A stretch of 64,000 nucleotides of DNA from Woeseiaceae bacterium (GTDB taxonomy: Bacteria; Pseudomonadota; Gammaproteobacteria; Steroidobacterales; Woeseiaceae), in contig JAJFKP010000012.1 in NCBI GenBank assembly GCA_021773135.1, forward strand, positions 1 to 64,000, in the 5' to 3' direction. The notes under the pieces are model-generated. The model did no database searches. It saw only the letters and a list, made by a program, of their open reading frames with translations, and was not told the DNA's origin. Positions 6,787 through 33,215 of the stretch are shown in pieces (positions within the stretch are counted from its first letter, which is position 1; each line of letters starts with the position of its first letter). The position numbers and the translations under genes were made by a program.

Positions 6787-8223
6787 CTATGCAGTAACCG
6801 AATCCTGGTGGCCCAGTCGTTTCAGCCCGAAACCCGTTTTCGAGAACGTCGCCGCAATCAGGAGTGAGAATATCGGGCCCGTCAGGCAGAAAATGGCCCA
6901 GGGGGCGTACTCGACGGTAGGCACTCCAAGCGTGGTCGCCATGAACAGGGCGGATACGGTCCATGGCATCAGTGGCTCAACAATCGTGACCGAATCTTCG
7001 ATTGAGCGGGACAGGTTTTCCGCTGCCAGGCCCTGGTCTTTGTACGCATCCTGAAACAGGCCGCCAACGATTAGCGCCGTAACGCCACCGTGACTGGTCA
7101 GTGAAATCATGGTTGCGCCGGACAGCATTGTCGCAAGCACCAGACCGAAGGCAGTACGGGCCCGACGCAACATCGTGTGGAGCAGTTTGTCGAGGCCGCC
7201 GGAAACATCCATTCCACCCGCCAACAGGAACGCAGAAATAATCAGGATCAGCGTTGTCGCCATGGAATTGACGCCACCGCGATTCAGCAAACCCCGTAAA
7301 CTCTCACTTGGCGCTTGCAGGACTTGCGAACTCACCATGTCCATATTGAAACCCGATATGGCCGACAGCAGTGCGGAATTGAAACTGAAGTTGTGCAACG
7401 TGACGCCGACAATCATGGCCACGAGCGAGGAAGCGACCATCGTGAGTGCAGCGGGCTTTCTGCGGAAAGTGCCGTACAGCACAACCACAGCAGGTATGAA
7501 AGTCAGCCAGTTTAGATTGTAAATCTGGTCAATCTCGAGCAACAGTCGGTTGCTGCCAGCGGACATTTCGAGTTGTCCGGCTTCAGTGTAGATGCTGGCC
7601 ACGAAATACACGACCAGTGCCACGACGAACGAGGGGCCGGCCGTGTACACCATGTTGCGAATGTGATCATACAAATCCGCTTTTGCGCCGATTGCGCAAA
7701 TATTGGTTGAGTCAGATAGCGGCGAGAGTTTGTCACCGAAATAGGCTCCGGAGACAACGGCACCGGCGGTGGCTGCCAACGGCGCGCCCATAGCGGCGGC
7801 CACGCCCATCAGCGCAACGCCGATGGTGCCCGCCGAGGCCCACGATGACCCCGTCAGCGACATGGTGGCGGTGACCAGGAACGCAGTCAGAATCATGTAT
7901 TCGGGATTGACAAGCTGGATGCCATAGAAAACGAGCAACGGGATTGTGCCACTGAACATCCACGTGCCAATCAGCATGCCGATTGACAGCAGTATCAAGA
8001 GTGCCGGCAGGACTGCGGCGAGTTTCCTGCCCGTCGACACCTGAATTGCTTCCCAGCCGTGGCCGTGTCGAACTGCGATAGCGCCTGCAACGGCCGCGGC
8101 GATCAGCATGACAATAATGAGCAGCTCTGTGCCCATAGGGAACACGGCGGCGCCGCCTGCCAGGCAGATGACCATCGTGGCCAGCGGCAGCACTGCCTCG
8201 AACAGACTGATATCCCGCGTCAT
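6787..8223 (-). CDS. Na+/H+ antiporter, NhaC family
   Basis: A 478-aa integral membrane protein with many hydrophobic helices and the NhaC-type core TATMSLTGSSWASAGTIGVA, followed by GAVVSGAYFGDKLSPLSDST, whose Asp/Ser-rich segment is the diagnostic feature of this IT-superfamily branch. A second such repeat (LTSHGGVTALIVGGLFQDAY, then ENLSRSIEDSVTIVEPLMPW) reflects internal duplication. Its ATG overlaps the stop of the upstream PLP enzyme by 4 bp, so the two are coupled. NhaC homologues can also exchange organic substrates, so the partner enzyme hints at transport of a sulfur compound or amino acid rather than simple sodium export; this is inference. Confidence 0.87.
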   Translation of the reverse strand: MTRDISLFEAVLPLATMVICLAGGAAVFPMGTELLIIVMLIAAAVAGAIAVRHGHGWEAIQVSTGRKLAAVLPALLILLSIGMLIGTWMFSGTIPLLVFYGIQLVNPEYMILTAFLVTATMSLTGSSWASAGTIGVALMGVAAAMGAPLAATAGAVVSGAYFGDKLSPLSDSTNICAIGAKADLYDHIRNMVYTAGPSFVVALVVYFVASIYTEAGQLEMSAGSNRLLLEIDQIYNLNWLTFIPAVVVLYGTFRRKPAALTMVASSLVAMIVGVTLHNFSFNSALLSAISGFNMDMVSSQVLQAPSESLRGLLNRGGVNSMATTLILIISAFLLAGGMDVSGGLDKLLHTMLRRARTAFGLVLATMLSGATMISLTSHGGVTALIVGGLFQDAYKDQGLAAENLSRSIEDSVTIVEPLMPWTVSALFMATTLGVPTVEYAPWAIFCLTGPIFSLLIAATFSKTGFGLKRLGHQDSVTA

Positions 8224-9407
8224 GACTCGTTGCCCGAAGGTGCGTTCGTGGCGGCATCAAATGCTTGTTGCAGGTCATTCCAAAGGTCGCTCGGGTCCTC
8301 GAGCCCAACGAAAAGTCGAATCATGCCTGGCGGTACGCCGAAATCGACAGCCGCGTTGTTTGCTCCAAACTGGCTGTGTGAAACAGCGGCCGGAACGACC
8401 AGGCTTTCGTAGCCTCCCCAACTGACGCCGAGACGAAATAACGCTAATGCGTCGCAAAAGAGCGGAATATTAATAGCTTCGCTTACCTCGAAACTGAACA
8501 GCCCGCCGTAACCCCGAAGCGGCGAAAAATCCTGCTTTTGTATGGCAGGATGGCAGACGCGCTTTACATTTTTGTGCTCGGCGAGTTTATGTGCAATCTG
8601 CAATCCGCTGTCGTGATGTCGCTGTATGCGTAGTGGCAACGTGCGCAAACCGCGTATCAGTCTGGCCGCGTCCTGTGCTGACAGGCATGCACCCAGGTAG
8701 GGTCTGACATCCTGATCGATGCGCTCGATCAGTTGCTTGCTGCCTGCCACGACGCCCGCAACGGTATCGCTGTGGCCGGATATATATTTGGTTGCCGAAT
8801 GAACGACCAGGTCGACGCCAAGCTGTAACGGGTTTTGGTTAATCGGCGAAGCCCAGCTGTTGTCCGCAATGGTCAGGACCGATTCCGCACGTGCCAGCTT
8901 CGCCAGTGTTGCAAGGTCCTGCTCTTCGAACATCCACGTGTTCGGGCTTTCAAGGTACAGAAGTTTCGCACCCGGCAGATTCTTCTTTACGTCATCAATA
9001 TCAGTGCCATCGACAAATACGGTTTCGATATCGAGTCGCGCACACGGTCCACGCAGCAAACGATAGGTATCTGCATAGACATTCTTGATACACACGACGC
9101 GGTCGCCGGGCCGCACAATACTCAGAATCGCATTGCTGATTGCCGCCATACCGCTGCTGAATGCAAGCGCCGCCTCGCCAACTTCGAGAGTCGCGATCTT
9201 GTCGTGCAGCACCGAGTTGGTTGGATTATCGACCCTCGAGTACACAGCCTGGTGCACATCACCGAGATAGCGATCGACCATTGCCTGGTAGCTGGCGAAA
9301 GTAAACAGGGACGTCTGGTAGATGGGTGGTGCGATGGCGCCTTCCGCATGGGGATCATCGTGCACCAGCTGGGTCTCGACAGACAGCGATGGGTTCTTCT
9401 GGTTCAT
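8220..9407 (-). CDS. Cys/Met metabolism PLP-dependent enzyme (cystathionine beta-lyase type)
   Basis: A 395-aa gamma-family PLP enzyme. Motifs: AIAPPIYQTSLFTF, YSRVDNPTNSVLHDKIATLE (phosphate-binding Tyr and Arg), SSGMAAISNAIL, ADNSWASPINQNP (PLP Asp), and the Schiff-base lysine in VVHSATKYISGHSDTVAG. The WAS in place of the usual TFA/TWA and the late VSWGGYESLVVPAAVSHS resemble MetC-like beta-lyases. It is coupled to the NhaC-type transporter by a 4-bp overlap, mirroring the lyase-permease pair at 998-3543. It is divergent from the phosphonate-region gene at 9584. Confidence 0.85.
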   Translation of the reverse strand: MNQKNPSLSVETQLVHDDPHAEGAIAPPIYQTSLFTFASYQAMVDRYLGDVHQAVYSRVDNPTNSVLHDKIATLEVGEAALAFSSGMAAISNAILSIVRPGDRVVCIKNVYADTYRLLRGPCARLDIETVFVDGTDIDDVKKNLPGAKLLYLESPNTWMFEEQDLATLAKLARAESVLTIADNSWASPINQNPLQLGVDLVVHSATKYISGHSDTVAGVVAGSKQLIERIDQDVRPYLGACLSAQDAARLIRGLRTLPLRIQRHHDSGLQIAHKLAEHKNVKRVCHPAIQKQDFSPLRGYGGLFSFEVSEAINIPLFCDALALFRLGVSWGGYESLVVPAAVSHSQFGANNAAVDFGVPPGMIRLFVGLEDPSDLWNDLQQAFDAATNAPSGNES

Positions 9408-9547
9408 TCGCTCTGATCAGGTATGGGGGACAATGTGAACTCTACACGATGCGCGTCTCATTTGGTCGCGGCGCAACAGTTCGCTTGAGCAGATTGCCGG
9501 CACAGGATTGCCTTGAATCCCGGGTTGGGAATTGCCGCACCCGTTCC

Positions 9548-9576
9548 TTTTCAACCCTGGCAAAAGCCGCTATAAC
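9548..9576 (+). promoter_or_regulatory. Candidate sigma-70 promoter, transcript nearly leaderless
   Basis: TTTTCA at 9548-9553 and TATAAC at 9571-9576 are separated by 17 bp. A start point about seven bases downstream of the -10 box would fall next to the ATG at 9584. The sequence TATAACAAAATGC from 9571 recurs exactly in the promoter at 23310. The -35 box matches the consensus at only four of six positions. Confidence 0.4.
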
Positions 9577-9583
9577 AAAATGC

Positions 9584-11626
9584 ATGCATGTAGGCCCCAC
9601 AACCAGGTTGCTACTTTCTCTTGCCGGAACGCCGGTGCTGCTATTCATATCGCCGTCGATTACGGTGTACTTGTCCAGCCAGGCCGAGCTCAATCACGAC
9701 CTTGGCGTGATAAATCCGTTTGTCTTTGCTGCGCTGGTCGTATTCACCCTGACATCTGCTTGTTACCTGGTGGCGGAGGCCGTCATCGGGCGTCAAACCG
9801 AACCTCGCGCGCTACCCGTACCGCTGGCCACCTACTACCTGGCCGGACCCGTTTTTCTGGCGTACTCATTGCTGCGAGAGGCTCCGCTGCCGCTGTTGGA
9901 GCAGCTGGCAGGCGTTATTGTGGGCGGTGCCGCCCTGTTTATCGGCGCCGCATTGCTTGCCACACGAGCAAATCGGCACGGCGCCGTCAGCTTTTTTGCT
10001 GTCCTGAGCGTGGCCTTTATCTTGTCCGAGACCTATCGACTGGCATCCGGCATCGAGCAGCCATCGCCGATGGACAAGACGCCAGAACCGGAACTGGTGC
10101 TAACAGACCGCGGCAGAGATTTGCCCAATATCTACCATCTCATTCTCGACGGCTATCAAAGCGATATATTTGCAATGGTTCTGACAGAACAAATGAAGTC
10201 TGAGATGTCCGATTTCACCTGGTACTCCGAGGCAACGGCCCTGTATGACCAGACGGTATGGTCAGTGCCCTCTGTCATGTTGGGCACGCAATTCAATTAC
10301 GCAAGAAGTCACGCACAATATCAGCGCGACGCCTTCAACAGCACGTCATCATTGCTGCATGAGGTGCGTGACGCGGGTTACCTGACGGTCGCATACAGCA
10401 GGAAGCTGTATCAGTTTGACTACGACTTGTTCGATGTCATGACCGAACATTTTGACAACATGGACACTAAAGTCCTGGACGACACAGAAGATTTTGCCAC
10501 GTTGTGGGTCTATCGCAATATGCCAAAGGTAGTGAGCCTGGCCATGGCAAAACGAAACTTTCTGATCAGCCCGGCCGATATCAGGAATCTGGGTGCACAG
10601 ACGTTCCTGGCGGATTCCGCCGCGCTCGAATCGAAATTAAGTTTCGATAATATTCTCATCGAAGAGTCAAATCTGCCGGCGACCGGACGCTACACTTTTG
10701 TGCACCTTGGCGTTCCCCATGACCCTTTCGTGCTCGCGGCAGATTGTTCAGAATCGCGCTCCGGTAATGTCATTACACAATCGCAATGCGCCGCACTACT
10801 GGTAACGAAATTTCTGAAGCGTCTCAAAAGCCTTGATCGCTACGATGACGCGTTGATCCTTATTCATGGGGATCACGGCGAGCGGTACCTTGTAGATGGC
10901 TCCAACCTGACAGAAATCGAGCATCGATCTCACCGGACATTGCTGTTACTGAAACCCCCTTCTGCAAATTCCCCTCAGCCACTTGAAGAATCACGAATCG
11001 CGGCTACGTTGCTCGATATTGCCCCGACGGTCTACGATTTTATGGGCAGGGAGTCGCTTGCTCACGAAGGACTATCGCTCATTCGTGACGAATATGACGG
11101 ATTTGTCGGACGCGAAAGAACCTATAGCGTGGCCATTGGCGAAAGCGCTTTACGGCAGCACAGGGTGGATGGCCATACCCTGATTTTTGACAAGGACCGG
11201 CAATTATCGGTTAACGCGGTCGACATTGATATATTAATCAGCGCTGCGGCGCCGGCGCCTCTGAATGAGATTATTGAGGCCGAAAACGGCACAATGACCA
11301 AGAACACCACCGTCGAATCTCGCCTGCCGGGTTCACATGGGTCTTACACCAGCAATGGCAGCATCAAGTTCCGCTTTGAATTGGCGGAGCCGGCAGTTGT
11401 ACAGCTGCAGGCTCGATTAGTTGCACCGGGCGCCAACAATAACTCGAGCTATGTTCGGATCGATAACAATGAAGCCGAAGTCTGGCACATGAATATATCC
11501 AAGAACTGGAATTGGCAGGCTTTTGACTCCTCCTGGGAGCTGGCGCCGGGAAAACATTTGCTGTCGATCGAGTCTCGTGAGCAGATCTTTCTGGATCAGC
11601 TGAAGCTGGTCGTTGAAGAAATCTAA
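9584..11626 (+). CDS. Membrane-anchored alkaline-phosphatase/sulfatase-superfamily protein
   Basis: From the ATG at 9584 the product is 680 aa; the open frame reaches back to 9326 but those codons show no family features. About five hydrophobic helices occupy residues 10-160. A periplasmic phosphatase/sulfatase-fold domain follows, with the metal-site start LPNIYHLILDGYQSD, a candidate Thr/Ser nucleophile region (YDQTVWSVPSVMLGTQ) and the metal ligands in LILIHGDHGERY. No CxPSR formylglycine motif is seen, so it may be a phosphatase, phosphodiesterase or transferase rather than a sulfatase. Residues about 570-680 look like a beta-sandwich carbohydrate-binding module (ENGTMTKNTTVESRLPGS, ending in LLSIESREQIFLDQLKLVV). 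The TagB/TagF-like and phosphonate genes lie downstream. Confidence 0.8.
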   Translation: MHVGPTTRLLLSLAGTPVLLFISPSITVYLSSQAELNHDLGVINPFVFAALVVFTLTSACYLVAEAVIGRQTEPRALPVPLATYYLAGPVFLAYSLLREAPLPLLEQLAGVIVGGAALFIGAALLATRANRHGAVSFFAVLSVAFILSETYRLASGIEQPSPMDKTPEPELVLTDRGRDLPNIYHLILDGYQSDIFAMVLTEQMKSEMSDFTWYSEATALYDQTVWSVPSVMLGTQFNYARSHAQYQRDAFNSTSSLLHEVRDAGYLTVAYSRKLYQFDYDLFDVMTEHFDNMDTKVLDDTEDFATLWVYRNMPKVVSLAMAKRNFLISPADIRNLGAQTFLADSAALESKLSFDNILIEESNLPATGRYTFVHLGVPHDPFVLAADCSESRSGNVITQSQCAALLVTKFLKRLKSLDRYDDALILIHGDHGERYLVDGSNLTEIEHRSHRTLLLLKPPSANSPQPLEESRIAATLLDIAPTVYDFMGRESLAHEGLSLIRDEYDGFVGRERTYSVAIGESALRQHRVDGHTLIFDKDRQLSVNAVDIDILISAAAPAPLNEIIEAENGTMTKNTTVESRLPGSHGSYTSNGSIKFRFELAEPAVVQLQARLVAPGANNNSSYVRIDNNEAEVWHMNISKNWNWQAFDSSWELAPGKHLLSIESREQIFLDQLKLVVEEI

Positions 11627-11753: not shown

Positions 11754-12908
11754 ATGTTATTGATAAAGGAATTCGTCTCGCTGTGGCGGATTCGCTTCCG
11801 GACACCGCTGCCGGAACGCGCGGTCATATTTTATTCGGAACACGAAAGTTATTTCGCATACTTTGATGGCCTCATTGATGCACTCAAAGCGAAACACGCA
11901 GATCCCTTCTGCTACGTTACTTCCGATATCAACGACCCGATCCTGACATCCGACAGTCCAGGCGTGCGCGCCTTTTACCTGAACAAACTGTTGCCGCTTT
12001 TCATGAAATTCGTTAACTGTCGTGTTTTCGTCATGACCTTGACCGATCTCGACAAGTTTCATCTACAGCGTTCCGTCAACCCGGTTCACTACGTCTACGT
12101 TTTTCACGCAATGAACAGTACGCACATGGCTTATCGCCACGGTGCATTTGATCATTATGACTCGATACTCTGCACCGGCCCCTATCAGGTCAGGGAATTG
12201 CAGCGTGATGCAGAAATTCGTTCAATTGGAAATCGAACATTGGTTGAGGCCGGTTACTCACGCCTCGAACGAATTCATTCTGCCTGGTCTTCACGACAGG
12301 CCGGGATCAACGCGTCGTCGCCGCGAACCGTGCTCATTGCGCCGTCCTGGGCGGCTAGCAACGTGTTGGAGAAACATGGCATAGAGCTGGTTACCGCGCT
12401 ACGGAATGCCAATTTCAATGTAATTGTTCGACCTCACCCGGAAACCAACAAACGTTATCCGGAATTGAGTACAGACCTGCAGCAGGCGTTTTCCGCAGAC
12501 AGCGGCTTTCAGCTGGAACGCTCGGTGCGCACTGACGATTCCATGCTGGCAGCCGACGTGCTGATCACCGACTGGTCGGGGATTGCGCTTGAATATGCTT
12601 TTGGCACGGAACGACCGGTTCTGTACATGGATGTACCGCGTAAAGTCCACAATGACCGATATGAGGAACTTGGCATCGAACCATTCGAAGCCAGTATGCG
12701 CAACGAACTTGGAATCGTTATGGCGCCGGAACAAATCGACAATATTGCTGACTTTGTGAACCAGTTGGTGAACAACCGACAGCGATATCGGGACCAAATC
12801 GTTAGACTTAGGTCAGAGAATGTATTCAACTTCGGTCATTCCGGTGAAATTGGCGCGCAGTACCTATGCGAGCTACTCTCATCTGACGTCCAATCGCAGA
12901 GTAATTGA
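11754..12908 (+). CDS. CDP-glycerol:glycerophosphotransferase (TagB/TagF) family protein
   Basis: A 384-aa protein without signal peptide, with the GT-B-like fold of the Glyphos_transf family. The donor-binding C-half has VRPHPETNKRYPEL and VLITDWSGIALEYAFGTERP, the two hallmark segments of TagF-type enzymes. In Gram-positives these move glycerol phosphate or ribitol phosphate from CDP-alcohols to teichoic acid. Here, three bases upstream of a cytidylyltransferase-PEP mutase fusion, the donor could instead be a CMP-phosphonate such as CMP-2-hydroxyethylphosphonate, made by the next gene, and the acceptor a surface glycan or lipid. The family is well supported; the donor is inference. Confidence 0.85.
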   Translation: MLLIKEFVSLWRIRFRTPLPERAVIFYSEHESYFAYFDGLIDALKAKHADPFCYVTSDINDPILTSDSPGVRAFYLNKLLPLFMKFVNCRVFVMTLTDLDKFHLQRSVNPVHYVYVFHAMNSTHMAYRHGAFDHYDSILCTGPYQVRELQRDAEIRSIGNRTLVEAGYSRLERIHSAWSSRQAGINASSPRTVLIAPSWAASNVLEKHGIELVTALRNANFNVIVRPHPETNKRYPELSTDLQQAFSADSGFQLERSVRTDDSMLAADVLITDWSGIALEYAFGTERPVLYMDVPRKVHNDRYEELGIEPFEASMRNELGIVMAPEQIDNIADFVNQLVNNRQRYRDQIVRLRSENVFNFGHSGEIGAQYLCELLSSDVQSQSN

Positions 12909-12911
12909 GCT

Positions 12912-14216
12912 TTGAAAAAGAAAAAATCAGTCTATGTCGGGATGAGCGCCGATCTTGTCCATCCCGGGCATTTGAATGTAATTCAGGTTGCGCGGGAGTT
13001 GGGCGAGGTAACGTTAGGACTGCTGACGGACGAGGCAATCGCGACCTATAAACGCCTGCCCTTCATGTCGTTTGAGCAACGCAAGATAGTCGCCGAGAAT
13101 ATCAAGGGCGTAAAGCGTGTAATTGCACAGGAGACGCTCGATTATGTTCCGAACCTGCGCAAGGTTCGGCCGCATTATGTGGTTCATGGCGACGACTGGA
13201 AAACTGGCACGCAGCGCGAAGTCCGGCAGGCAGTAATCGATACCCTGGCCGAATGGGGCGGCCAGCTCGTCGAGCCGTCTTATACGCCGGGAATTTCTTC
13301 GACGGCCCTTAATGTCGCAAACAAAGAAATTGGTACGACGCCGGAGATTCGAATGAAACAATTCCGCCGTCTGCTTATGGCGAAACCGTTGGTACGCGTT
13401 CTGGAAGCCCATAGCGGACTATCGGGCTTGATCGTCGAGAAAGCGCGCGTTGAAATTGACGATCGACCGCGCGAGTTTGACGCCATGTGGCTTAGCAGCC
13501 TGACGGATTCAACGTTGAAGGGTAAACCCGATATTGAGTTCGTCGACCTGACCTCGAGAGTAAGCACGATCAGCGACATACTCGAAGTTACAACGAAGCC
13601 GGTTATTTATGACGGCGATACGGGCGGCTATCCTGACCAATTCGCGCTGACGGTGCGCCGCCTGGAGCGACTTGGTGTATCTGCAATTATTATCGAAGAC
13701 AAGGTCGGCCTGAAGAGGAACTCGCTTTATGGGACGAGCGCGCAACAGACGCAGGATAGTATAGAAGGGTTTTGCGAGAAAATCGTCGCCGGGAATAACG
13801 CCCGAGTGACCGAAGATTTCGTCATCATTGCGAGAATAGAGAGCCTGATTCTCGAGGCAGGCCTGGAAGACGCTCTACAGCGGGCTGCTGCCTATATTGA
13901 GGCTGGCGTATTTGGAATCATGATTCACAGCAAGAATGAGTCTCCGGATGAAATTCTTGAGTTTTGCCGGGAATACACCAACAGGGGACTCCAGGCACCG
14001 CTCGTTGTCGTGCCGACCACTTACGACCGGATTACCGAGCAAGAGCTCATCGATGCCGGAGCCCGCGTCGTGATCTACGCCAATCACCTCCTCAGGGCGT
14101 CTTATCCGGCAATGGTAAAAACTGCCGAAACCATTCTACGGCACGGTCGCGGCCATGAAGCCGCAAAAGAATGTATGTCGATCAAAGACATTCTGAACGT
14201 TTTTGACGGGGGCTAA
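12912..14216 (+). CDS. Bifunctional cytidylyltransferase-phosphoenolpyruvate mutase (Fom1-like)
   Basis: A 434-aa fusion starting at a TTG. Residues 5-135 are a cytidylyltransferase of the nucleotidyltransferase fold ([20 protein letters not shown] with the HxGH motif, and [11 protein letters not shown] as the equivalent of the RTxGISTT loop). Residues about 155-430 are PEP mutase with the definitive EDKxxxKxNS signature ([17 protein letters not shown]) and the [12 protein letters not shown] metal-site motif. PEP mutase makes phosphonopyruvate from PEP and so opens phosphonate biosynthesis. The same domain order is found in Fom1 of fosfomycin-producing Streptomyces, whose N-domain attaches CMP to 2-hydroxyethylphosphonate. 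Three-base gaps link it to both neighbours. Confidence 0.93.
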
Positions 14217-14219
14217 TGC

Positions 14220-15344
14220 GTGCTTTCGCCGGCATTATTTTACGCCAGCCTGCGTGCCGCAAATATCGACTTTTTTGCCGGAGTCCCTGACTCCCTCTTG
14301 AAAGATTTCTGTGCGTACGTGGCTGATCATGCGGCAGCAGACGCGAATCTGATCGCGGCCAACGAAGGCGCGGCGATCGCGCTCGCTGCCGGTCATCACC
14401 TCGCAACAGGGCGCTGTGCGCTGGTTTACTTGCAGAATTCGGGTCTGGGCAATGCCCTGAATCCGCTGGTATCGCTGGCCGATTCCGGGGTCTACTCGAT
14501 CCCCATGCTAATCCTCGTTGGCTGGCGCGGCGAACCCGGTAAGTCCGATGAGCCTCAGCATGTAAAACAGGGACGGACTACTCGCGAACTTCTGGACTGT
14601 ATTGGCATTCCGCACGAGGTTCTCCCGACGGATGCTGATGAAACTCGAAAGCTCGTATTGCGAGCAACCAAATACATGCACGAAAATCAGTCGCCGTTTG
14701 CCATCGTCGTATCGGATGGCACTTTTGACAAGTATGCGCACGTTCCGGTTTCCTCCGGGTTTGAAATGCGGCGCGAAGACGCCGTTCGTGGCGTTGCCTC
14801 GAAAGTCGGGACATCCGCCACCATCGTGGCGACAACCGGCAAGACCGCCCGTGAGCTGTTTGAGTATCGATCCGAGGCCGGTGATGGTCATGCAAGCGAC
14901 TTCCTGACGGTTGGTTCAATGGGCCACGCATCGCAGATTGCCATGGCTATTGCGTTGGCGCGCAGGGACAGACAGGTTGTCTGTCTCGACGGTGACGGTG
15001 CCTTAATCATGCACATGGGGTCGTTGGCGATCAGCGGCACGAACGGCACAAAAAATTTCAAGCACATTGTCGTCAACAATGGCGCGCATGACTCTGTCGG
15101 TGGTCAGCCTACCGCCGGCCACGACATCAATATTTGCGAAATTGCCAGGGCATGTTGCTATCTCAGTGCCGAACGCATAGTAGAGCCCGGTGATCTCGAC
15201 GAGGCGATCGACCGTCTCCTGCAGACAGACGGGCCTGCACTTCTCGAGATCGTTACCAATACAGGGGCAAGAAGCGACCTGGGTCGGCCGACGATTTCAC
15301 CAATTGAGAACAAACTGAGTTTCATGCGGAATTTAGAGGAATGA
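14220..15344 (+). CDS. Phosphonopyruvate decarboxylase (Fom2/Ppd-like)
   Basis: A thiamine-diphosphate enzyme of 374 aa that pulls the unfavourable PEP mutase reaction by decarboxylating phosphonopyruvate to phosphonoacetaldehyde. The pyrimidine-binding half shows FFAGVPDSLLKDFCAYV and the catalytic Glu in NEGAAIALAAGHHLATG. The C-half has the TPP motif GDGALIMHMGSLAISGT, ending at VVNNGAHDSVGGQPT. Length and the single-chain two-domain layout match known phosphonopyruvate decarboxylases. It starts at a GTG three bases after the Fom1-like stop and is followed four bases later by the dehydrogenase gene. Confidence 0.93.
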   Translation: MLSPALFYASLRAANIDFFAGVPDSLLKDFCAYVADHAAADANLIAANEGAAIALAAGHHLATGRCALVYLQNSGLGNALNPLVSLADSGVYSIPMLILVGWRGEPGKSDEPQHVKQGRTTRELLDCIGIPHEVLPTDADETRKLVLRATKYMHENQSPFAIVVSDGTFDKYAHVPVSSGFEMRREDAVRGVASKVGTSATIVATTGKTARELFEYRSEAGDGHASDFLTVGSMGHASQIAMAIALARRDRQVVCLDGDGALIMHMGSLAISGTNGTKNFKHIVVNNGAHDSVGGQPTAGHDINICEIARACCYLSAERIVEPGDLDEAIDRLLQTDGPALLEIVTNTGARSDLGRPTISPIENKLSFMRNLEE

Positions 15345-15348
15345 CGCA

Positions 15349-16512
15349 ATGGCGGTTGTTTGTGCGCCCGGCGCGATAGCTGATTTAGAGAAGATTCTTG
15401 ATGCGCGCAATTGCAGGCGCATATTCCTGGTTTCGGGTCGCAACTCGTTGCAGCGCTCTGGTGCAGGTCGCACGCTTGCCAATTTGCTGCATTCCTGTGA
15501 AGTTACTCACTTTTCCGATGTCAAGCAGAACCCGTCGCTTGAGCAACTTGAATCAGGATTGGCGGCATTTCGGGATGCACAGCCCGACCTGATCATCGGA
15601 GTGGGCGGTGGCTCCGCGATGGACATGGCCAAACTCATCAAGATTTTTTCCAACCAGTCACAGCCACCGCGCCACTATGTCGAAGGCGATGCCACCCTGA
15701 GGTCAGCGACCGTGCCGCTCGTGGCCATTCCAACCACCGCCGGTTCAGGCAGCCAGGCCACTCATTTTGCAGTGCTCTATATCGGGACAACGAAATTTTC
15801 GGTAGCACATGCATCGATGCTTCCGGACGAAGCACTCGTCGATCCCGCGTTTTCACGAAGTGTGCCACCTGCCGTTGCGGCGTCGGCCGGGCTCGACGCC
15901 CTCAACCAGGGAATCGAATCGTACTGGTCCATTCATTCGACTAACGAATCGAAAGCAATGGCGAGAAACGCAATTGAACTGACCTGGGGCGGATTGCATG
16001 AGATCGCGGGTGATCCGGGTGACGATGTCTACCTGGCAATGGCGACCGGTGCACAACGCGCAGGCGAGGCAATCAACATCACCAAGACCACGGCACCGCA
16101 TGCCATTTCCTATCCGATAACCGCTTATTTTGGCGTGCCGCACGGACACGCAACAGGACTCATTCTGGCAGCTGTGCTGCGCTACAACGCGGTCGTTTCC
16201 GGGGCAGACTGTCTCGACAGCCGGGGCCCGACCTATGTAAAGAAAACTATTGCTGAAATCGCCGTGCTGCTGGGGAAACCTGATGCGAACGCTGCAGCCG
16301 ATGCCTACAATGACATGATGGATGCGTTGGGTCTGAGCCGAAATTTCTGTGCATTGGGGATTCGTTCGAGGAACGATATCGAAATGATTGTCGAGCACGG
16401 ATTCAATCCGCAACGCGTCAGGAACAACCCGCGTCTCGTTACGGCGTCAGCGTTGAGGATGATGCTGCAAGAACTGCAATCCCCTGCAAGACCGCCGCCA
16501 AACGGGGACTAA
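15349..16512 (+). CDS. Iron-type alcohol dehydrogenase, probable phosphonoacetaldehyde reductase (FomC/PhpC-like)
   Basis: A 387-aa type III alcohol dehydrogenase. NAD(P) binding is shown by GVGGGSAMDMAKLIK and IPTTAGSGSQATHF. Metal ligands are Asp and His residues in SAGLDALNQGIESYWS, HAISYPITAYFGVPHGHATG and downstream. A GAGGA ribosome site lies eight bases before the ATG. In this setting it should reduce phosphonoacetaldehyde to 2-hydroxyethylphosphonate, as FomC does in fosfomycin and PhpC in phosphinothricin biosynthesis. No AEP transaminase is visible nearby, which favours 2-HEP over 2-aminoethylphosphonate as the product. Last gene of the tight operon; its 3' end overlaps the convergent 78-aa gene by 4 bp. 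Confidence 0.88.
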   Translation: MAVVCAPGAIADLEKILDARNCRRIFLVSGRNSLQRSGAGRTLANLLHSCEVTHFSDVKQNPSLEQLESGLAAFRDAQPDLIIGVGGGSAMDMAKLIKIFSNQSQPPRHYVEGDATLRSATVPLVAIPTTAGSGSQATHFAVLYIGTTKFSVAHASMLPDEALVDPAFSRSVPPAVAASAGLDALNQGIESYWSIHSTNESKAMARNAIELTWGGLHEIAGDPGDDVYLAMATGAQRAGEAINITKTTAPHAISYPITAYFGVPHGHATGLILAAVLRYNAVVSGADCLDSRGPTYVKKTIAEIAVLLGKPDANAAADAYNDMMDALGLSRNFCALGIRSRNDIEMIVEHGFNPQRVRNNPRLVTASALRMMLQELQSPARPPPNGD

Positions 16513-16745
16513 CCGTTTTCTGCCGGATCGTCGGCCGTGGTATCGACATCCTGCTCGTTCTCCCTGGATGAGAACAGCGACTTCAATTTGTACCAGTAGG
16601 TCTTGACAAGCATTGTGATTGCCGCGAAAAAACCCACAATTGCGGACATGATCGCACTGCCGGAGCCCGGGTCAATATAGGCCATGGCAGGTGCCGCGAA
16701 CGTAAGCAGGATAATCGACGATAGAATCAGGTTTGACGATTTCAT
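16509..16745 (-). CDS. Small exported membrane protein with YIDPGSGS motif
   Basis: A 78-aa product: a signal peptide or first helix (LILSSIILLTFAAPAMA), the motif YIDPGSGSAIMSAIVGFF, a transmembrane segment, then TYWYKLKSLFSS and an acidic tail. As far as I recall, short proteins with this YIDPGxGS and KTYWYKxKxFF layout sit beside alkaline-phosphatase-fold and polysaccharide genes, so I take it as real despite its size. The function is unknown; a membrane-assembly partner of the phosphonate/glycan machinery is possible. It follows the YidC paralogue on the same strand. Confidence 0.7.
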   Translation of the reverse strand: MKSSNLILSSIILLTFAAPAMAYIDPGSGSAIMSAIVGFFAAITMLVKTYWYKLKSLFSSRENEQDVDTTADDPAENG

Positions 16746-16874: not shown

Positions 16875-18176
16875 TCAGATCTTCAGGATCGTCTGTTGCA
16901 CCAGCTGCAGTCCATTGGTCGCCGTCCAGTACCAGACCATGGCAGCCGGAAACGCGTAAAAAAGAACGAAAAAAGCCGCAGCCATCAGGTATAGCTGCGT
17001 TTTTTGTGCCTTAACAACGCTGTTTGGGGCTACCGAGTTGCGGAACGTAAGCGTCGCAAATAGCGTCACCAGCGTCATCAGGACCGGCAGAATATTGATT
17101 GCATCGCCAAGCATTGGAATCGCAACCGGCAGGGAAGCTACAGAGTCCGGATAAGCGAGACTGTCTATCCAAAGGAAACCGGCATCAACCAGTTGCGGCA
17201 TTTCCCCGAGTGCATTAAAAACAGCAATCAGGACCGGTATCTGAATCAGCAGGCCCAACATGGGTGTCAGTGTGAAGAACGGCGTAATACCAAGATCTTT
17301 GTGCACCTGCATGATGCGGTTGTGTGCCTGTTCCCCGGTGTACTGCGCTTTGATTTCGCGGATCTGGGGTTCAAGCCTGCGTTGGTAGGTACCGACTTTG
17401 CGTTGGGCGCGAACCGTCATATAACTCAGCGGAAGTAACAGAACCTTCAGAACAACTGCCAGCAGGACGATAGACCATCCCCAGCCCACTCGTGTTATCT
17501 CTTGAATTGTCTCCAGCACTTTCTCAACCACTTTCGACATCGCGGCAAGCCAGCCCCATAAATGTGAATAGCGGGTGACTTCAAATACGCGTTCTTTCCT
17601 GGCAACAGACTCTTTTTCGCCAAAGATAAAACGGACGTCAGCGTTCGTGCCGGGCGGCCAAACCAATAGCACCCCGCCTTCAGTAACGGACAACGTGGCA
17701 CCTGGTGCCTCAATTCCAAGCACGTTATATCGACCTGTGATCGTCAGCCACGACCCGTCGGTAAAGGTGCGCTTATCCGATGGCGGGTCCAGGTTTCGAT
17801 TCTCATTCAGGACGTTGACTCGGGCACTGCCGTAAAACTCAGCCAGCCCGAAAAATCGATAGCTGTCTGCGGCGATTTGCGCCAGCAAACTTAAGTCGAT
17901 GTGCCGGTTTTCCGCCGGCAATCGGAATTCCACTCGCAGCACGCCGTCTGCACATTGCGATGAAAGTGTTTGGGGAATTGCCTGGCCGGTAGTAATTTGA
18001 AAGCGCAGCGCATCCAGCACGATTGTGCATTCGTGAATCTCAGTTGCTGATTCCTGTGCGCGGCTAATTCCGCCAAAGAGTAAAAGCGCGACCGCCAGGA
18101 GCGCACCAGTGCTGCGCAACACGTTATGCATTCGCCGCTGTTTCGACCCGCTGCCATGCGAAAACGCTTGCGCCAT
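16875..18176 (-). CDS. Divergent YidC/Oxa1 membrane insertase paralogue
   Basis: A 433-aa protein. The N-terminal signal anchor lies at residues 20-40, followed by a periplasmic beta-rich domain of about 170 residues, much shorter and different from the P1 domain of housekeeping YidC. The Oxa1/60KD_IMP core covers residues about 225-430 (VGWGWSIVLLAVVLKVLLLP, LGITPFFTLTPMLGLLIQIP, and WYWTATNGLQLVQQTILK). The groove Arg of the housekeeping enzyme (IIVRG) is replaced by Lys (VVLKV). It is not in the rpmH-rnpA-yidC setting, so it is an accessory copy, probably serving the neighbouring surface genes. An internal ATG at 18131 is an alternative start; the first ATG has a GGGGA element upstream. 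Confidence 0.88.
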   Translation of the reverse strand: MAQAFSHGSGSKQRRMHNVLRSTGALLAVALLLFGGISRAQESATEIHECTIVLDALRFQITTGQAIPQTLSSQCADGVLRVEFRLPAENRHIDLSLLAQIAADSYRFFGLAEFYGSARVNVLNENRNLDPPSDKRTFTDGSWLTITGRYNVLGIEAPGATLSVTEGGVLLVWPPGTNADVRFIFGEKESVARKERVFEVTRYSHLWGWLAAMSKVVEKVLETIQEITRVGWGWSIVLLAVVLKVLLLPLSYMTVRAQRKVGTYQRRLEPQIREIKAQYTGEQAHNRIMQVHKDLGITPFFTLTPMLGLLIQIPVLIAVFNALGEMPQLVDAGFLWIDSLAYPDSVASLPVAIPMLGDAINILPVLMTLVTLFATLTFRNSVAPNSVVKAQKTQLYLMAAAFFVLFYAFPAAMVWYWTATNGLQLVQQTILKI

Positions 18177-20126: not shown

Positions 20127-20974
20127 TGTACGTCGTTCCCGGACGATGCCAGCGCTTCCACCGCATCGACCAGGAACCAGCCGCCGCAGGAAGTCCAGGC
20201 TCCCTCCAGCACGACAATCGGCAACTCCCGCAGCTGACGCTGTGCCAGCGGGTGGCGCATCGAGCTCCACAGCGCCGCTTTGTCGACATTGTCGTCGAAA
20301 TAGGCCGCAGCCACCGCGTCGGGTCGATCATAGGCGAGCCGCTCGAGAGGAATCGAATGCCAACCCGGGCGCTGCTCATAGTTGTCCAGTCCGGCAGCCA
20401 GCAGCATCTCGTGCACGAGCGTACCGGGCCCGCTGGTGGCGCCACCCGATGTCATGTACAAAACGTTTTGTTTCGTCGCCGACTGACGAATGGCACCCAG
20501 CCTGGCATTCATATCACGAACGATGGCGTGGCCCTGTTCGGGCACATTAAGCCGCTCGGCAATCGTCACTATCGATTGGCGAATATCCTCAAAATTGCCG
20601 GCATAAGGAATCTGCAGCACCGCTATGCCAGCCCGGTCGAATAGTGCCGTGGCCTGCGGCCCGCCACCGTAGGACCGCACCACAAGATCGGGCTGGATCG
20701 CCAATACATCTTCGGCAAGCGGCCGAATGCGGCGCACACCGACTGCCGCGTCGCGCATGTACGAATAACTTTCTGCCGCATCGGGCGACACCGCGAGTAT
20801 GCGGTGGCGTGGCAGCAGCTTTAGCACGAATTGATCGGCACAATAGTCGAGGCTAACGACCCTTGCAGCGGGTTCGTCAGCTGCGATGGCCGGACCGGCA
20901 CCGAACGCCGCCAGGCCGAAGAGACATGTCAGCAGGAATCGGGACACGATTGCGTCAAAACCTGAATTGCGCAC
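20123..20974 (-). CDS. btuF: Periplasmic vitamin B12-binding protein
   Basis: A 283-aa class III (helical backbone) binding protein with a signal peptide (FLLTCLFGLAAFGAGPAIA). RVVSLDYCADQFVLKLLP is the standard opening strand, and EDVLAIQPDLVVRSYGGGPQ the ligand-cleft region of PeripBP_2 proteins. The GTG at 20974 overlaps the btuB end by 20 bp; a second in-frame GTG at 20947, after the btuB stop, gives a more compact signal peptide and may be the true start. It delivers cobalamin from BtuB to BtuC/BtuD. Confidence 0.88.
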   Translation of the reverse strand: MRNSGFDAIVSRFLLTCLFGLAAFGAGPAIAADEPAARVVSLDYCADQFVLKLLPRHRILAVSPDAAESYSYMRDAAVGVRRIRPLAEDVLAIQPDLVVRSYGGGPQATALFDRAGIAVLQIPYAGNFEDIRQSIVTIAERLNVPEQGHAIVRDMNARLGAIRQSATKQNVLYMTSGGATSGPGTLVHEMLLAAGLDNYEQRPGWHSIPLERLAYDRPDAVAAAYFDDNVDKAALWSSMRHPLAQRQLRELPIVVLEGAWTSCGGWFLVDAVEALASSGNDVQ

Positions 20975-22793
20975 CTACGTGCCCGGAAACACCCGGAGTA
21001 CCGTAACCAAGCACCTGCTGATAGTCCTGATCGAACAGATTCTCGATGCGTCCATACAGCTCCATTTGTTCGCTCAGCTGGTAGCGACCGGCAACGTCTA
21101 CGCGAGTCCAAGGGCTCACAGTGCCATTGGCATCTTCTTCGCTGCCGTTGTAACGCAAAGCGATATTGCCTGAAAACACACCGCCGGGGTTGAGCGCGAG
21201 CGCCACATTTCCGGAGTGTTCCGGTACCCGTGGCAGCCGGGCGCCACTTTGATCTGTTGTGTCAATATTAGTGTAGTTTGCCGTGACCCGGGCATACTCA
21301 GATAAGCGCAAGCCGGCCGCAATTTCAAAACCCGTCGAGTTCGCCGAGGCAATGTTCTCGTAGGTGCCGTTGTCAAAGGAGAAGGTTATAAGATCCGTCG
21401 TATCCTGATTGAAATATGTCAGGCCGACCTCACCGCGATTATCGGCGGTGCGAATCACAACGCCAACATCAAAAGCATCAGAAACTTCCGGCCGCAGGCC
21501 CGGATTCGGTTCGGTGCCGCCACAGCAGAAAAATGTTGTCTGAAAAAGTGTGGGTGCCTTGAAGCCTTCCCCCCAGCTGGCGCTTATCGTTACCTGATCA
21601 TGGGGATTGTAGGCAACTGCCAGACGTCCCGTGGTTTCCGCACCGAAGCGTGCATGGTCATCGCGCCGCAGCCCGGCCGTAAGTGTCAGCGAATCCAGAG
21701 GCTGCAATTCGTACAACGCAAACAGACCATCGATCGACGCGTCGTTAGTGCCGCTCTCTGTTTCTTCTCTTTCGGCACCTATCACCAGGCGGTTCCGCTG
21801 GTTAAGCAGCAGGTTTCCCTGATAGCGAAAAGTCGCTCTCTCGCCTTCGCTTTGAAACGCCGGCAGGCCATTGGAGAAATTCTCGCGTTCAATGTCGGCG
21901 ACGCCTATTAGCAAAAGATTGTCGAGCCTGCCAGCAAACATTGGCAGCTGCAGCTTAAGGTTTGCTGTTAGCTCTTTGGTCTTGCTTGACTCATTGCCGT
22001 CTCCGATATTGCCTTCGGCCCCAAAGGAGAAACTGTCGAAATCCAGATCGGCTTCAGTCCAGAGAAGTGACGCCTCGAGACGCGCATCGGCTGGCAAAAT
22101 CAGGCCGCCAACCGCGCTGACGGTGGCGGAATCATAGCCGTCTTTTTCGGCGTTGCCGTTTCGCTCATCGGCTTTGGATATCCCCTCCACTGAACTGCCT
22201 GTCACCGTAAGGCGAAAATCATAGCGGTCATGTGCGCCATTGACCGCTGCACCACCACGAAATGCGCCAAAAGACCCCCCTTGTGCAAATGCGTTGCCGC
22301 CGAATCCCGTTGCAGGTCGCTTCGTAATGATATTGACAACGCCACCAATCGCATCCGTTCCCCACAGCGTCGATTGGGGGCCTTTCAGGATCTCAATGCG
22401 GTCCACATTCGCCGGATCCAGTCTCGCAAAGTCGAACCCACCGCCAGGAGACGATGGATCATTGACTACAACGCCATCAATAACGACCAGGGTTTGCTCG
22501 CTTGCTGCGCCGCGAATGCGCACGCTGGCAAACCCGCCAAAATTACCACTTTGGGTTACGGTTACGCCGGGCGCCGTGGCAATTGCATCGACGATGAAAT
22601 CGACGCCAAGCGCCTCGATGTCATCGGCACTGATCACCACGACGCTGGATCCGACATCGGTTTCCGGTTGCGGCAAGCGCGTGCCATACACGACGATGTC
22701 ATCCGCGCTGTTTTCGACATCCGCGCCTTGAGCAATAGCCTGTACGGGCACGATCAGGCTGGCGATAGACCACCACACAGCATTTCTTTGCAT
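20955..22793 (-). CDS. btuB: TonB-dependent outer-membrane cobalamin receptor
   Basis: A 612-aa outer-membrane barrel. After the signal peptide (WSIASLIVPVQAIAQG) there is a TonB-box-like acidic stretch (ADDIVVYGTR), then the plug (VVVISADDIEALGVDFIVDA, IRGAASEQTLVVIDGVVVND, and IEILKGPQSTLWGTDAIGGV). The rest is a beta-barrel ending in the C-terminal aromatic signature VGAQFRF. The ATG at 22793 is preferred over one at 22856 because of the AGGGGA ribosome site just upstream. The riboswitch about 160 bases upstream and the btuFCD genes downstream settle the substrate as cobalamin or a corrinoid. Confidence 0.93.
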   Translation of the reverse strand: MQRNAVWWSIASLIVPVQAIAQGADVENSADDIVVYGTRLPQPETDVGSSVVVISADDIEALGVDFIVDAIATAPGVTVTQSGNFGGFASVRIRGAASEQTLVVIDGVVVNDPSSPGGGFDFARLDPANVDRIEILKGPQSTLWGTDAIGGVVNIITKRPATGFGGNAFAQGGSFGAFRGGAAVNGAHDRYDFRLTVTGSSVEGISKADERNGNAEKDGYDSATVSAVGGLILPADARLEASLLWTEADLDFDSFSFGAEGNIGDGNESSKTKELTANLKLQLPMFAGRLDNLLLIGVADIERENFSNGLPAFQSEGERATFRYQGNLLLNQRNRLVIGAEREETESGTNDASIDGLFALYELQPLDSLTLTAGLRRDDHARFGAETTGRLAVAYNPHDQVTISASWGEGFKAPTLFQTTFFCCGGTEPNPGLRPEVSDAFDVGVVIRTADNRGEVGLTYFNQDTTDLITFSFDNGTYENIASANSTGFEIAAGLRLSEYARVTANYTNIDTTDQSGARLPRVPEHSGNVALALNPGGVFSGNIALRYNGSEEDANGTVSPWTRVDVAGRYQLSEQMELYGRIENLFDQDYQQVLGYGTPGVSGHVGAQFRF

Positions 22794-22949
22794 ATATTTT
22801 CCCCTGCGATTCCAACCGTCGAGTCTGGTCACGCTGGTAACGACATTTTTCGGCATCGCTGACAGGCAGCGCGACGGGCCGATGTGTTGTCGTTACACGG
22901 GAACTCTTTATCCGGCTCTGACGGTTAACCCGACCTCGAGCGAACGACA

Positions 22950-30246: not shown

Positions 30247-30276
30247 GACTGTTTTCCTTTCGCTATTTAACATGCC

Positions 30277-31293: not shown

Positions 31294-31355
31294 CGAAGGT
31301 CTCCGAAAGTGGTTTTCGAAAACTTAGACACGTGTTGCTCTTTATTCCGGTCGTG

Positions 31356-32201: not shown

Positions 32202-32222
32202 CTGGTCTGTGGATCGACATTT

Positions 32223-33107: not shown

Positions 33108-33124
33108 TATAAATGCTCGGAAAC

Positions 33125-33158
33125 TTAGACCGATATTGCCAACAAAGTCGGTCTAAGA
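33125..33158. promoter_or_regulatory. Perfect 10-bp inverted repeat between divergent glycan genes
   Basis: CTTAGACCGA at 33125-33134 and TCGGTCTAAG at 33149-33158, with a 14-base spacer. It sits centrally in the 108-bp gap between the methyltransferase (minus) and the UDP-glucuronate decarboxylase (plus), so it could be a shared operator. The related string AACTTAGACAC lies at 31320-31330, just upstream of the 31293 gene start. Confidence 0.5.
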
Positions 33159-33215
33159 CGTTGCAGACATTTTGTGCCGGGATTGTCTCGTTGATTTGGA
33201 TGCTGGGGGAGCGAG

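What the first reader, a model, noticed from the sequence alone, without database searches (positions are those of the whole stretch)
11754..16512. A Fom1-Fom2-FomC-like phosphonate pathway wired to a TagF-like transferase
Four genes with gaps of three or four bases encode a TagB/TagF-family transferase, a cytidylyltransferase-PEP mutase, phosphonopyruvate decarboxylase and an iron alcohol dehydrogenase. Seen: all four families by their motifs. Known: Fom1, Fom2 and FomC make and cytidylylate 2-HEP in fosfomycin biosynthesis; PntC-type cytidylyltransferases activate phosphonates for surface polymers. Inferred: with no Fom3/Fom4 and no AEP transaminase here, CMP-2-HEP is the product, used to decorate a surface glycan or lipid in a Gram-negative.
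Basis: partly seen in the sequence, partly recalled or inferred. Interest (0 to 1): 0.88.

Follow-up and report, generated by a model that had tools for sequence, protein, structure and literature searches.

The report
Phosphonate envelope module with YidC-like protein
A bacterium carries genes to make an unusual carbon-phosphorus compound and, beside them, a recurring set of membrane and transfer proteins (one related to the protein inserter YidC) that probably carries it onto the cell surface; this set could supply missing steps of a pathway whose ending was unknown.

Summary
The four-gene operon is real: TagF-like transferase, Fom1-type cytidylyltransferase-PEP mutase, phosphonopyruvate decarboxylase, iron alcohol dehydrogenase. 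The cytidylyltransferase domain is 65% identical to PDB 5x3d (Fom1, recalled), and no AEP transaminase passes its cut-off in the genome, so CMP-2-HEP is the likely product. The operon is flanked by an alkaline-phosphatase-superfamily transferase (LTA-synthase-like; 9326-11626), a second, divergent YidC paralogue (16875-18176, minus) and a 78-aa YIDPGSGS membrane protein (16509-16745, minus). Elsewhere these occur as fusions: YidC+AP in one protein, YIDP+TagF in another. In 75 related loci, AP/YidC occur in 10 of 11 with this TagF and 0 of 64 without; TagF, LicD and CDP-alcohol transferase share none. In 198 spirochaete genomes the fusion and TagF coincide (35 both, 3 and 1 alone). The cassette also accompanies AEP and ethanolamine/choline-type activation. 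Model: TagF takes the head group from CMP, YidC-like carries the lipid-linked product across the membrane, AP transfers it outward. The assembly is strongly supported; the flip-and-transfer steps are conjecture. My searches found no paper describing it.

The parts
9326..11626 (+). Alkaline-phosphatase-superfamily (LTA-synthase-like) membrane transferase; likely start ATG 9584 (680 aa)
   Evidence: PF00884 19.9 bits, below the 25 cut-off; profile A4 best in PDB = LTA synthase 2w5q, E 5e-13, also MCR-1/2 weakly; D, T, H, D, H of catalytic type in every AP domain that fills the column (66-68 of 72 rows), though in alignment A4 one of 9 rows (L047) has S for the T; homologue beside TagF/YidC in L235, 26% over 362 aa, E 3e-25
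11754..12908 (+). TagF-like transferase, proposed to take HEP-phosphonyl from CMP-HEP
   Evidence: PF04464 over cut-off; TagF then TarL best in PDB, E 1e-6 and 2e-5; AlphaFold model pLDDT 87.9, nearest solved structure TagF 3l7j/3l7k, E 2e-13; H118, R226, H228, D273, S275 invariant in 9 sequences, the window's included
12912..14216 (+). Fom1-type fusion: HEP cytidylyltransferase domain (about 5-140) + PEP mutase (about 151-432)
   Evidence: TIGR02320 over cut-off; residues 5-140 match 5x3d_A, E 1.5e-56, 88 of 136 identical
14220..15344 (+). phosphonopyruvate decarboxylase
   Evidence: TIGR03297 469 bits, cut-off 312.5
15349..16512 (+). iron alcohol dehydrogenase, proposed phosphonoacetaldehyde reductase (to 2-HEP)
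   Evidence: Fe-ADH Pfam; best NCBIfam TIGR03405 PsrA, below cut-off; Fe-ADH near ppd in most fom1 loci
16509..16745 (-). 78-aa YIDPGSGS membrane protein; the same segment is the N-terminus of TagF in the fused modules
   Evidence: ORF, no Pfam; motif plus TM segment in 10 of 11 TagF loci and 0 of 69 other fom1 loci; very similar segment in L235; 3' end overlaps the Fe-ADH gene by 4 bases
16875..18176 (-). YidC/Oxa1-family paralogue (433 aa), second of two in the genome; such a domain is fused to the AP domain elsewhere
   Evidence: PF02096 106.9 bits; housekeeping YidC is elsewhere, 219 bits; outside the housekeeping clade (100/99) and paired with L235's YidC (100/99)

Best explanation
A seven-gene phosphonyl-tailoring module. 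Cytoplasm: PEP -> phosphonopyruvate (mutase domain) -> phosphonoacetaldehyde (Ppd) -> 2-HEP (Fe-ADH) -> CMP-2-HEP (Fom1-type domain). The TagF-like enzyme, held at the membrane by the YIDP protein, transfers HEP from CMP to a lipid or lipid-linked acceptor. The YidC-like protein, whose family has a hydrophilic groove open to lipid, lets this product cross the inner membrane. The AP-superfamily enzyme, with an LtaS/EptA-type threonine, transfers the HEP group to an envelope acceptor. Shown by sequence: the enzyme families, and the linkage of YIDP, TagF, AP and YidC as one cassette by fusion, adjacency and co-occurrence. Inferred: HEP as product, TagF as user of CMP-HEP, YIDP as its anchor. Conjecture: the lipid intermediate, crossing by YidC, final transfer by AP.
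For: Fusions: YidC+AP in one protein (Pfam; alignment), YIDP+TagF. L235 repeats the module (YIDP-fom1-ppd-feADH-TagF-YidC, AP opposite); L021 has AP-fom1-ppd-feADH-TagF-YIDP-YidC on one strand. L195 is an AEP version: PepM-ppd-aminotransferase-NTP transferase-YIDP-TagF-AP-YidC, and L196 has the same order. AP/YidC in 10 of 11 TagF loci, 0 of 64 others, Fisher 1e-11. LicD 26, TagF 11, CDP-alcohol transferase 8 of 75 loci, none with two, 0 of 20,000 shuffles as low. 198 spirochaetes: both 35, fusion only 3, TagF only 1, neither 159. 35 of 39 strong TagF hits within 5 kb of a fusion, a span of 0.8% of those genomes. Own class: TagF in 6 of 303 genomes, all six among the YidC-like/fusion genomes. 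CyTase 88/136 identical to 5x3d. E. coli YidC scrambles lipids in vitro (preprint PMC10491306, passages).
Against: No chemistry was tested. The AP partner is not one family: the window's is LtaS-like; L195/L196 carry DUF3413 (YejM/PbgA-like, recalled) and do not align with the window's by BLAST. YidC and YIDP lie on the opposite strand here, so co-transcription is not given. The cassette has exceptions: L233 has AP, YIDP and YidC but no TagF in 20 kb; the fused gene in L239 has no TagF in its stretch, that genome's TagF being on another contig; L019 has TagF with no AP/YidC over threshold, L032 no YidC. In 11 of 38 fetched stretches with a fused protein no TagF lies within three genes. The window's YidC keeps the groove lysine, so it could still be an insertase. 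The Fe-ADH is below the PsrA cut-off. The AP fold model is poor (pLDDT 50).
Confidence: 0.6

Rival explanations
1. TagF-like transfers HEP directly to a lipid-linked glycan in the cytoplasm, which is exported by an ordinary route. The YidC-like protein is a dedicated insertase or chaperone for the YIDP/TagF or AP membrane proteins, and AP is a periplasmic editor or hydrolase, or transfers another group.
For: YidC family function is protein insertion; the window copy keeps the groove lysine. The Thr-type AP family also holds hydrolases (recalled). TagF-like capsule polymerases are known in Gram-negatives (PMC8262930, abstract in the listing).
Against: The 20 fused YidC domains compared have all lost the groove cation (N/S/T), against K/R in 12 of 12 split and 12 of 12 housekeeping copies, which is odd for an insertase. 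Fusion to AP fits a shared lipid substrate better. Fom1 loci with LicD instead of TagF show no AP/YidC.
Confidence: 0.25
2. TagF-like, a polymerase by ancestry, makes poly(2-hydroxyethylphosphonate), a teichoic-acid-like chain joined through phosphonate esters, since HEP has both an acceptor OH and the activated phosphonate.
For: Nearest solved structures are TagF and TarL polymerases; HEP is chemically an AB monomer (inference); LTA-synthase-like partner.
Against: The same TagF-YidC-AP cassette goes with aminotransferase-containing (AEP-type) sets and with LicC plus choline/ethanolamine kinase, whose amino ends cannot chain this way.
Confidence: 0.07
3. Free 2-HEP or a fosfomycin-like small molecule is the end product; neighbours are unrelated.
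For: Fom1, Ppd and Fe-ADH are shared with fosfomycin biosynthesis (Fom1 and HEP: PMC6697681, parts read; the other two recalled).
Against: No fom3/fom4-like gene among the 11 flanking proteins scanned; the transferase cassette is linked across phyla.
Confidence: 0.03
4. The product is CMP-AEP, with an aminotransferase encoded elsewhere.
For: Some Fom1-type loci carry an aminotransferase fused to an NTP transferase and no Fe-ADH in the stretch (L178).
Against: No TIGR02326 match over cut-off in the genome; Fe-ADH in the operon; CyTase is Fom1-like.
Confidence: 0.03

Closest known systems
Fosfomycin pathway Fom1/Fom2/FomC (Streptomyces)
   Same: PEP mutase fused to a HEP cytidylyltransferase (65% identical domain), decarboxylase, Fe-ADH
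   Different: no Fom3/Fom4 seen near; CMP-HEP feeds an envelope transferase cassette
Pnt phosphonyl tailoring (PntC, AEP; Rice et al. 2019, PMC6697681, parts 1-3 of 8 and Discussion read)
   Same: CMP-phosphonate logic for surface tailoring; Ppm fused to PF01467 is 23.6% of Ppm enzymes in that paper
   Different: HEP rather than AEP; the paper calls the tailoring steps after C-P bond formation enigmatic and fills in the cytidylyl step; in the parts I read it names LicD-like transferases and glycosyltransferases, not TagF/YidC/AP
Lic pathway (LicA/B/C/D)
   Same: kinase/synthase, CMP activation, transferase
   Different: LicD replaced by TagF + AP + YidC; the two share none of 75 fom1 loci
TagF/TarL teichoic-acid polymerases and Gram-negative TagF-like capsule polymerases
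   Same: fold, CMP-linked donor family, conserved His
   Different: short single domain, fused or paired with YIDP; donor probably CMP-phosphonate
LTA synthase / EptA-MCR phosphoethanolamine transferases
   Same: AP fold family, Thr in the nucleophile place, membrane anchored
   Different: fused or paired with a YidC-family domain; donor unknown
YidC/Oxa1 insertases
   Same: PF02096 core
   Different: second copy, outside the housekeeping clade; fused forms lack the groove cation called strictly conserved

Membership tests
Fom1-type CyTase-PEP mutase | PEP mutase motif EDKxxxxxNS and equivalog score | tested here: met
   [14 protein letters not shown]02320 387.7 of 319.6
Fom1-type CyTase-PEP mutase | N-terminal cytidylyltransferase close to the Fom1 domain | tested here: met
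   5x3d_A E 1.5e-56, 88/136 identical; that 5x3d is the Fom1 domain is recalled, the record says phosphoenolpyruvate phosphomutase
Fom1-type CyTase-PEP mutase | uses 2-HEP and CTP | not testable with these tools
   needs assay
phosphonopyruvate decarboxylase | equivalog score | tested here: met
   TIGR03297 469 of 312.5
phosphonoacetaldehyde reductase (FomC/PsrA type Fe-ADH) | equivalog score or close kinship | tested here: inconclusive
   TIGR03405 is the best of 17 models but 189 of 424
fosfomycin pathway | fom3/fom4 present | tested here: inconclusive
   not among 11 flanking proteins put to Pfam; whole genome and the rest of the window not searched for them
AEP-type Pnt pathway | AEP transaminase | tested here: not met
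   TIGR02326 none over cut-off in the genome
TagF/TagB (PF04464) | family score, fold and invariant His | tested here: met
TagF/TagB (PF04464) | polymerase of phosphodiester chains | not testable with these tools
   needs assay
LTA synthase / pEtN transferase (AP superfamily) | Thr nucleophile place and Asp/His metal-type residues | tested here: met
   window has all; T 66/66, D 67/67, H 68/68, DH 68/68 of rows filling the column; one of 9 rows of A4 (L047) shows S for T
LTA synthase / pEtN transferase (AP superfamily) | lipid donor | not testable with these tools
   needs assay
YidC insertase (housekeeping) | falls in the housekeeping clade | tested here: not met
   housekeeping clade 100/99 excludes it
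YidC insertase (housekeeping) | positively charged groove residue | tested here: met
   K in the window copy; absent in the 20 fused relatives compared

The most novel reading that the evidence does not exclude
A YidC-family protein has been repurposed as a dedicated lipid flippase/scramblase inside a modular surface-tailoring machine (CMP-head group -> TagF -> YidC -> AP transferase). Only the head-group synthesis is swapped (2-HEP, AEP, ethanolamine/choline type), across Spirochaetota, Bacteroidota, Thermodesulfobacteriota, Synergistota and the window's phylum. In the fused form the insertase groove charge is lost, so the domain no longer inserts proteins.
Probability: 0.3. Interest if true: 0.95.

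Novelty: new variant of a known kind. Interest (0 to 1): 0.85.

Why it matters
Most bacterial phosphonate capacity is thought to go to cell surfaces, but the 2019 study that found CMP activation (PMC6697681) calls the tailoring steps enigmatic and fills in only the cytidylyl step, in the parts I read. This module names candidates for the later steps in several phyla: TagF-like transferase, YidC-like carrier, LTA-synthase-like transferase and a small partner. It makes two questions testable: how phosphonates reach the outside, and whether a YidC-family protein can serve lipid traffic instead of protein insertion. The link with choline/ethanolamine-type activation suggests one general machine for polar head groups.

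Tried and rejected
Considered and rejected. (1) TagF alone is the partner and the neighbours are accidental: rejected by fusions and co-occurrence. (2) The fused YidC-AP is common in the window's own phylum: none among 398 genomes with profile A1 at E 1e-25, though profile A3 in 369 genomes of the class brought up three, in G1166, G1364 and G1148. (3) Fusion common in Bacteroidota: only the centre genome among 395. In some searches only the best two candidates of each genome were scored, so these absences are weak; searches also scored only a few candidates per genome (4 to 9). (4) The module on plasmids: no match to one fused protein. (5) Vertical inheritance: the full-length fom1 fusion is in the window genome and in 1 of the 59 others (G056), in none of 11 of its genus; G+C is 51.5-54% at 9-14 kb against 54-61% in the rest of 1-36 kb, save a second dip at 30-34 kb: suggestive only. 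(6) Promoter/terminator scan gave no more than chance. (7) Fold model of the AP protein too poor to search.

Weak points of my counts. Five of 80 fom1 loci had no fom1 ORF called and were dropped (L009, L028, L069, L071, L076). Genes were called by a simple longest-ORF rule, which lost some genes (e.g. ppd and Fe-ADH of L055 and L056, seen by tblastn). The TagF, YidC and AP profiles were built from some of the loci in which they were then counted. The spirochaete sample was centred on a genome known to carry the module and its genomes are related, so Fisher values are descriptive. The 20 fused YidC rows of the tree are a choice of mine, and two of them (L023, L072) are cut by a contig end before the AP half; L210 gave no YidC domain and is missing from the tree (44 rows). 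In one search a locus (L231) whose PepM lies just outside its stretch was labelled as without PepM. In one search three outgroup rows were mislabelled; one search repeats the count without them (11 changes, 10 forced by supported branches).
Full report
OBSERVATION. The families are as stated: TagF/TagB family over its cut-off, PEP mutase and phosphonopyruvate decarboxylase over their equivalog cut-offs, a cytidylyltransferase domain, and an iron alcohol dehydrogenase whose best named model is the phosphonate dehydrogenase PsrA, below its cut-off. The cytidylyltransferase domain matches PDB chain 5x3d (named phosphoenolpyruvate phosphomutase; I recall it as the Fom1 domain) with 88 of 136 residues identical. 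No AEP transaminase passes its cut-off in the genome. The genome is Gram-negative by its TonB-dependent receptor (20955-22856); its name was not given.

HEP CASSETTE. Of the 75 of these 80 in which the fusion gene was called, 70 have the decarboxylase and 62 an Fe-ADH within six genes. By tblastn the cassette is also in archaeal contigs (L004, L049, L061, L069). So Fom1-Ppd-FeADH is a common cassette and not itself the surprise. In the window's own genus 0 of 11 other genomes have the fusion; 1 of 59 relatives has a full-length copy (G056, 59% identical), without TagF or YidC beside it (L193). Its presence is patchy.

In several of these loci a TagF-like gene stands with a large protein whose N-terminus is a YidC/Oxa1 domain and whose C-terminus is an AP-superfamily (sulfatase-like) domain (Pfam). 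In the window both halves are present as separate genes on either side of the operon: an AP protein at 9326-11626 and a YidC-like protein at 16875-18176 (minus). The genome has another, stronger YidC elsewhere (219 against 109 bits). A third part is a 78-residue membrane protein with the motif YIDPGSGS at 16509-16745 (minus). The same motif and membrane segment form the N-terminus of TagF in the fused modules. Thus two kinds of fusion tie the four parts together. The YIDP segment is in 10 of 11 TagF loci and in 0 of 69 other fom1 loci.

REPEATS OF THE MODULE. L235, from another family of the window's class, has YIDP-fom1-ppd-feADH-TagF-YidC with AP opposite. Desulfobotulus alkaliphilus (L021) has AP-fom1-ppd-feADH-TagF-YIDP-YidC on one strand. 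L195, from the window's family, carries an AEP version: PepM with an NTP-transferase domain, Ppd, class V aminotransferase, second NTP transferase, YIDP, TagF, a DUF3413+sulfatase AP protein, YidC; L196, from its order, has the same gene order, only two of its genes (aminotransferase, AP) put to Pfam. Identities to the window are modest: TagF 33-46% in the split modules and 28% to the fused-type L018; YidC 32-45%.

STATISTICS. Among the 75 fom1 loci, AP or YidC occurs in 10 of 11 with TagF (both in 7) and 0 of 64 without (Fisher 1e-11). LicD (26), TagF (11) and CDP-alcohol phosphotransferase (8) share no locus, which none of 20,000 shuffles reached (LicD and the phosphotransferase named from one representative each); 30 loci have none of the three. 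So TagF fills the place of the enzyme that uses CMP-HEP. In 198 spirochaete genomes the fusion (38) and this TagF type (36) coincide in 35. In the 37 fusion genomes other than the centre, 35 of 39 strong TagF hits lie within 5 kb of a fusion, 2 more within 10 kb and 2 on other contigs; that 5-kb zone is 0.8% of the sequence. A fortieth, weak TagF match is elsewhere. TagF lies within three genes of a fused protein in 27 of the 38 fetched stretches that hold one; 3 more have it 5-7 genes off and 8 have none in the stretch (40 fetched). In the window's class TagF is in 6 of 303 genomes and all six are among the 12 genomes that I take as YidC-like (262 bits or more) or fused (long frames); the six others listed there (133-141 bits) I take as housekeeping. 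These genomes are related and only a few candidates per genome were scored, so the P values are descriptive.

HEAD GROUPS ARE SWAPPED. Around the spirochaete modules the activation genes differ: LicC-like NTP transferase with choline/ethanolamine kinase and the ethanolamine permease EutH (L154); PepM with decarboxylase and aminotransferase (L157, L158, where TagF is 6-7 genes from the fusion); Fom1 with an NTP-transferase/aminotransferase fusion (L178); PepM with Fe-ADH (L164); a lone cytidylyltransferase (L153) (Pfam on chosen representatives, the rest by my profiles). On the TagF tree, presence of PepM nearby changes 11 times, 10 forced by supported branches (at least one row is probably mislabelled). 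So the TagF-YidC-AP cassette is the constant part and the head group the variable part.

YIDC. On a 44-row tree housekeeping YidCs form one clade (100/99), fused ones another (100/100), and split ones lie between; the window's pairs with L235's (100/99). At the place of the groove's positive residue, which a 2022 paper calls strictly conserved in all homologues (PMC8920935, abstract and passages), the 20 fused copies compared have N, S or T, split copies K/R in 12 of 12, and housekeeping copies K/R in 12 of 12. By that paper the charge is dispensable in E. coli YidC when its neighbour at 517 is hydrophilic or aromatic but essential in S. mutans YidC2, which has Trp there; the fused copies all have Trp. 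So loss of insertase function is possible, not proven. E. coli YidC itself scrambles lipids in vitro (preprint PMC10491306, passages).

AP PROTEIN. The profile of nine relatives finds LTA synthase first in the PDB (E 5e-13), then sulfatases, further LTA synthases, phosphonate monoester hydrolases and, weakly, the MCR transferases. Asp, Thr, His and Asp-His of the active-site type are kept in every row that fills the column (66-68 of 72 rows); in the nine-row alignment L047 shows Ser in the Thr column. Threonine at the nucleophile place is that of LtaS and EptA (recalled), not the Cys/Ser of sulfatases. The AlphaFold model is too poor to use. The TagF model is good (pLDDT 87.9) and its nearest solved structure is TagF.

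MECHANISM. I propose that TagF moves HEP from CMP to a lipid-linked acceptor, the YidC-like protein lets this cross the inner membrane, and the AP enzyme moves HEP to an envelope acceptor. AP-superfamily transferases of this kind use lipid donors (recalled: LtaS from phosphatidylglycerol, EptA from phosphatidylethanolamine), which would explain why AP/YidC go with TagF and not with LicD. Enzyme families and linkage are shown; HEP as product is inferred from close homology; the lipid carrier, crossing and last transfer are conjecture.

LITERATURE. Full-text searches for YidC with sulfatase, fusion and phosphonate (20 of 34 listed), YidC with paralogue, LTA synthase and scramblase (20 of 462 listed), YidC with teichoic acid and CDP-glycerol, phosphonoglycan/phosphonolipid transferases and AEP/HEP with LicD, YidC, CDP-glycerol (25 of 35 listed) listed no paper that by title and abstract start describes this assembly. 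The library holds open-licence papers only. Rice et al. 2019 (PMC6697681; parts 1-3 of 8 and Discussion read) established CMP activation and called the tailoring steps enigmatic. Of Acker et al. 2022 (PMC8931226) I saw passages on HEP and phosphonylated glycoproteins.

Noticed in passing
L154, L155, L156, L160, L165 (spirochaete stretches): TagF and YidC-AP fusion beside a LicC-like NTP transferase/choline-ethanolamine kinase fusion (Pfam on the L154 copy, the others by clustering), with the ethanolamine permease EutH in L154: a likely phosphoethanolamine or phosphocholine version of the same machine.
   Followed up: partly
L195 2130-3956, L196 14584-16299, L231 8369-10183: The AP partner is a DUF3413+sulfatase protein of YejM/PbgA type (Pfam on L195 and L196, L231 by profile), not the LtaS-like kind of the window.
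   Followed up: partly
L178, L168, L162 and other spirochaete stretches: Two or three copies of the YidC-AP fusion close together beside one or two TagF genes, as if each served another acceptor.
   Followed up: no
L154 10752-11903 and six other stretches: A SpoIID-domain gene (Pfam on the L154 copy) lies next to a YidC-AP gene in seven spirochaete stretches.
   Followed up: no
L188, L189: In two genomes of the spirochaete sample YidC (238-286 aa), TagF and a weakly matching AP protein are separate neighbouring genes, a split form outside the window's phylum.
   Followed up: no
L004, L049, L061, L069: Fom1-Ppd-FeADH cassette (by tblastn) in archaeal contigs (Woesearchaeota, Methanomassiliicoccaceae, Pacearchaeota).
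   Followed up: no
26 of 75 fom1 loci, e.g. L024 4481-5212: LicD-family gene beside the HEP cassette, so HEP is probably placed on glycans by a LicD route in many bacteria.
   Followed up: partly
window 16509-16512: The Fe-ADH gene and the YIDP gene converge and overlap by 4 bases at their stop codons.
   Followed up: no
window 2344-3543, 8220-9407, 23387-24661: Three Cys/Met-metabolism PLP enzyme genes within about 22 kb, unrelated to the module.
   Followed up: no
window about 30000-34000: A second stretch of low G+C (51-52%) outside the module.
   Followed up: no
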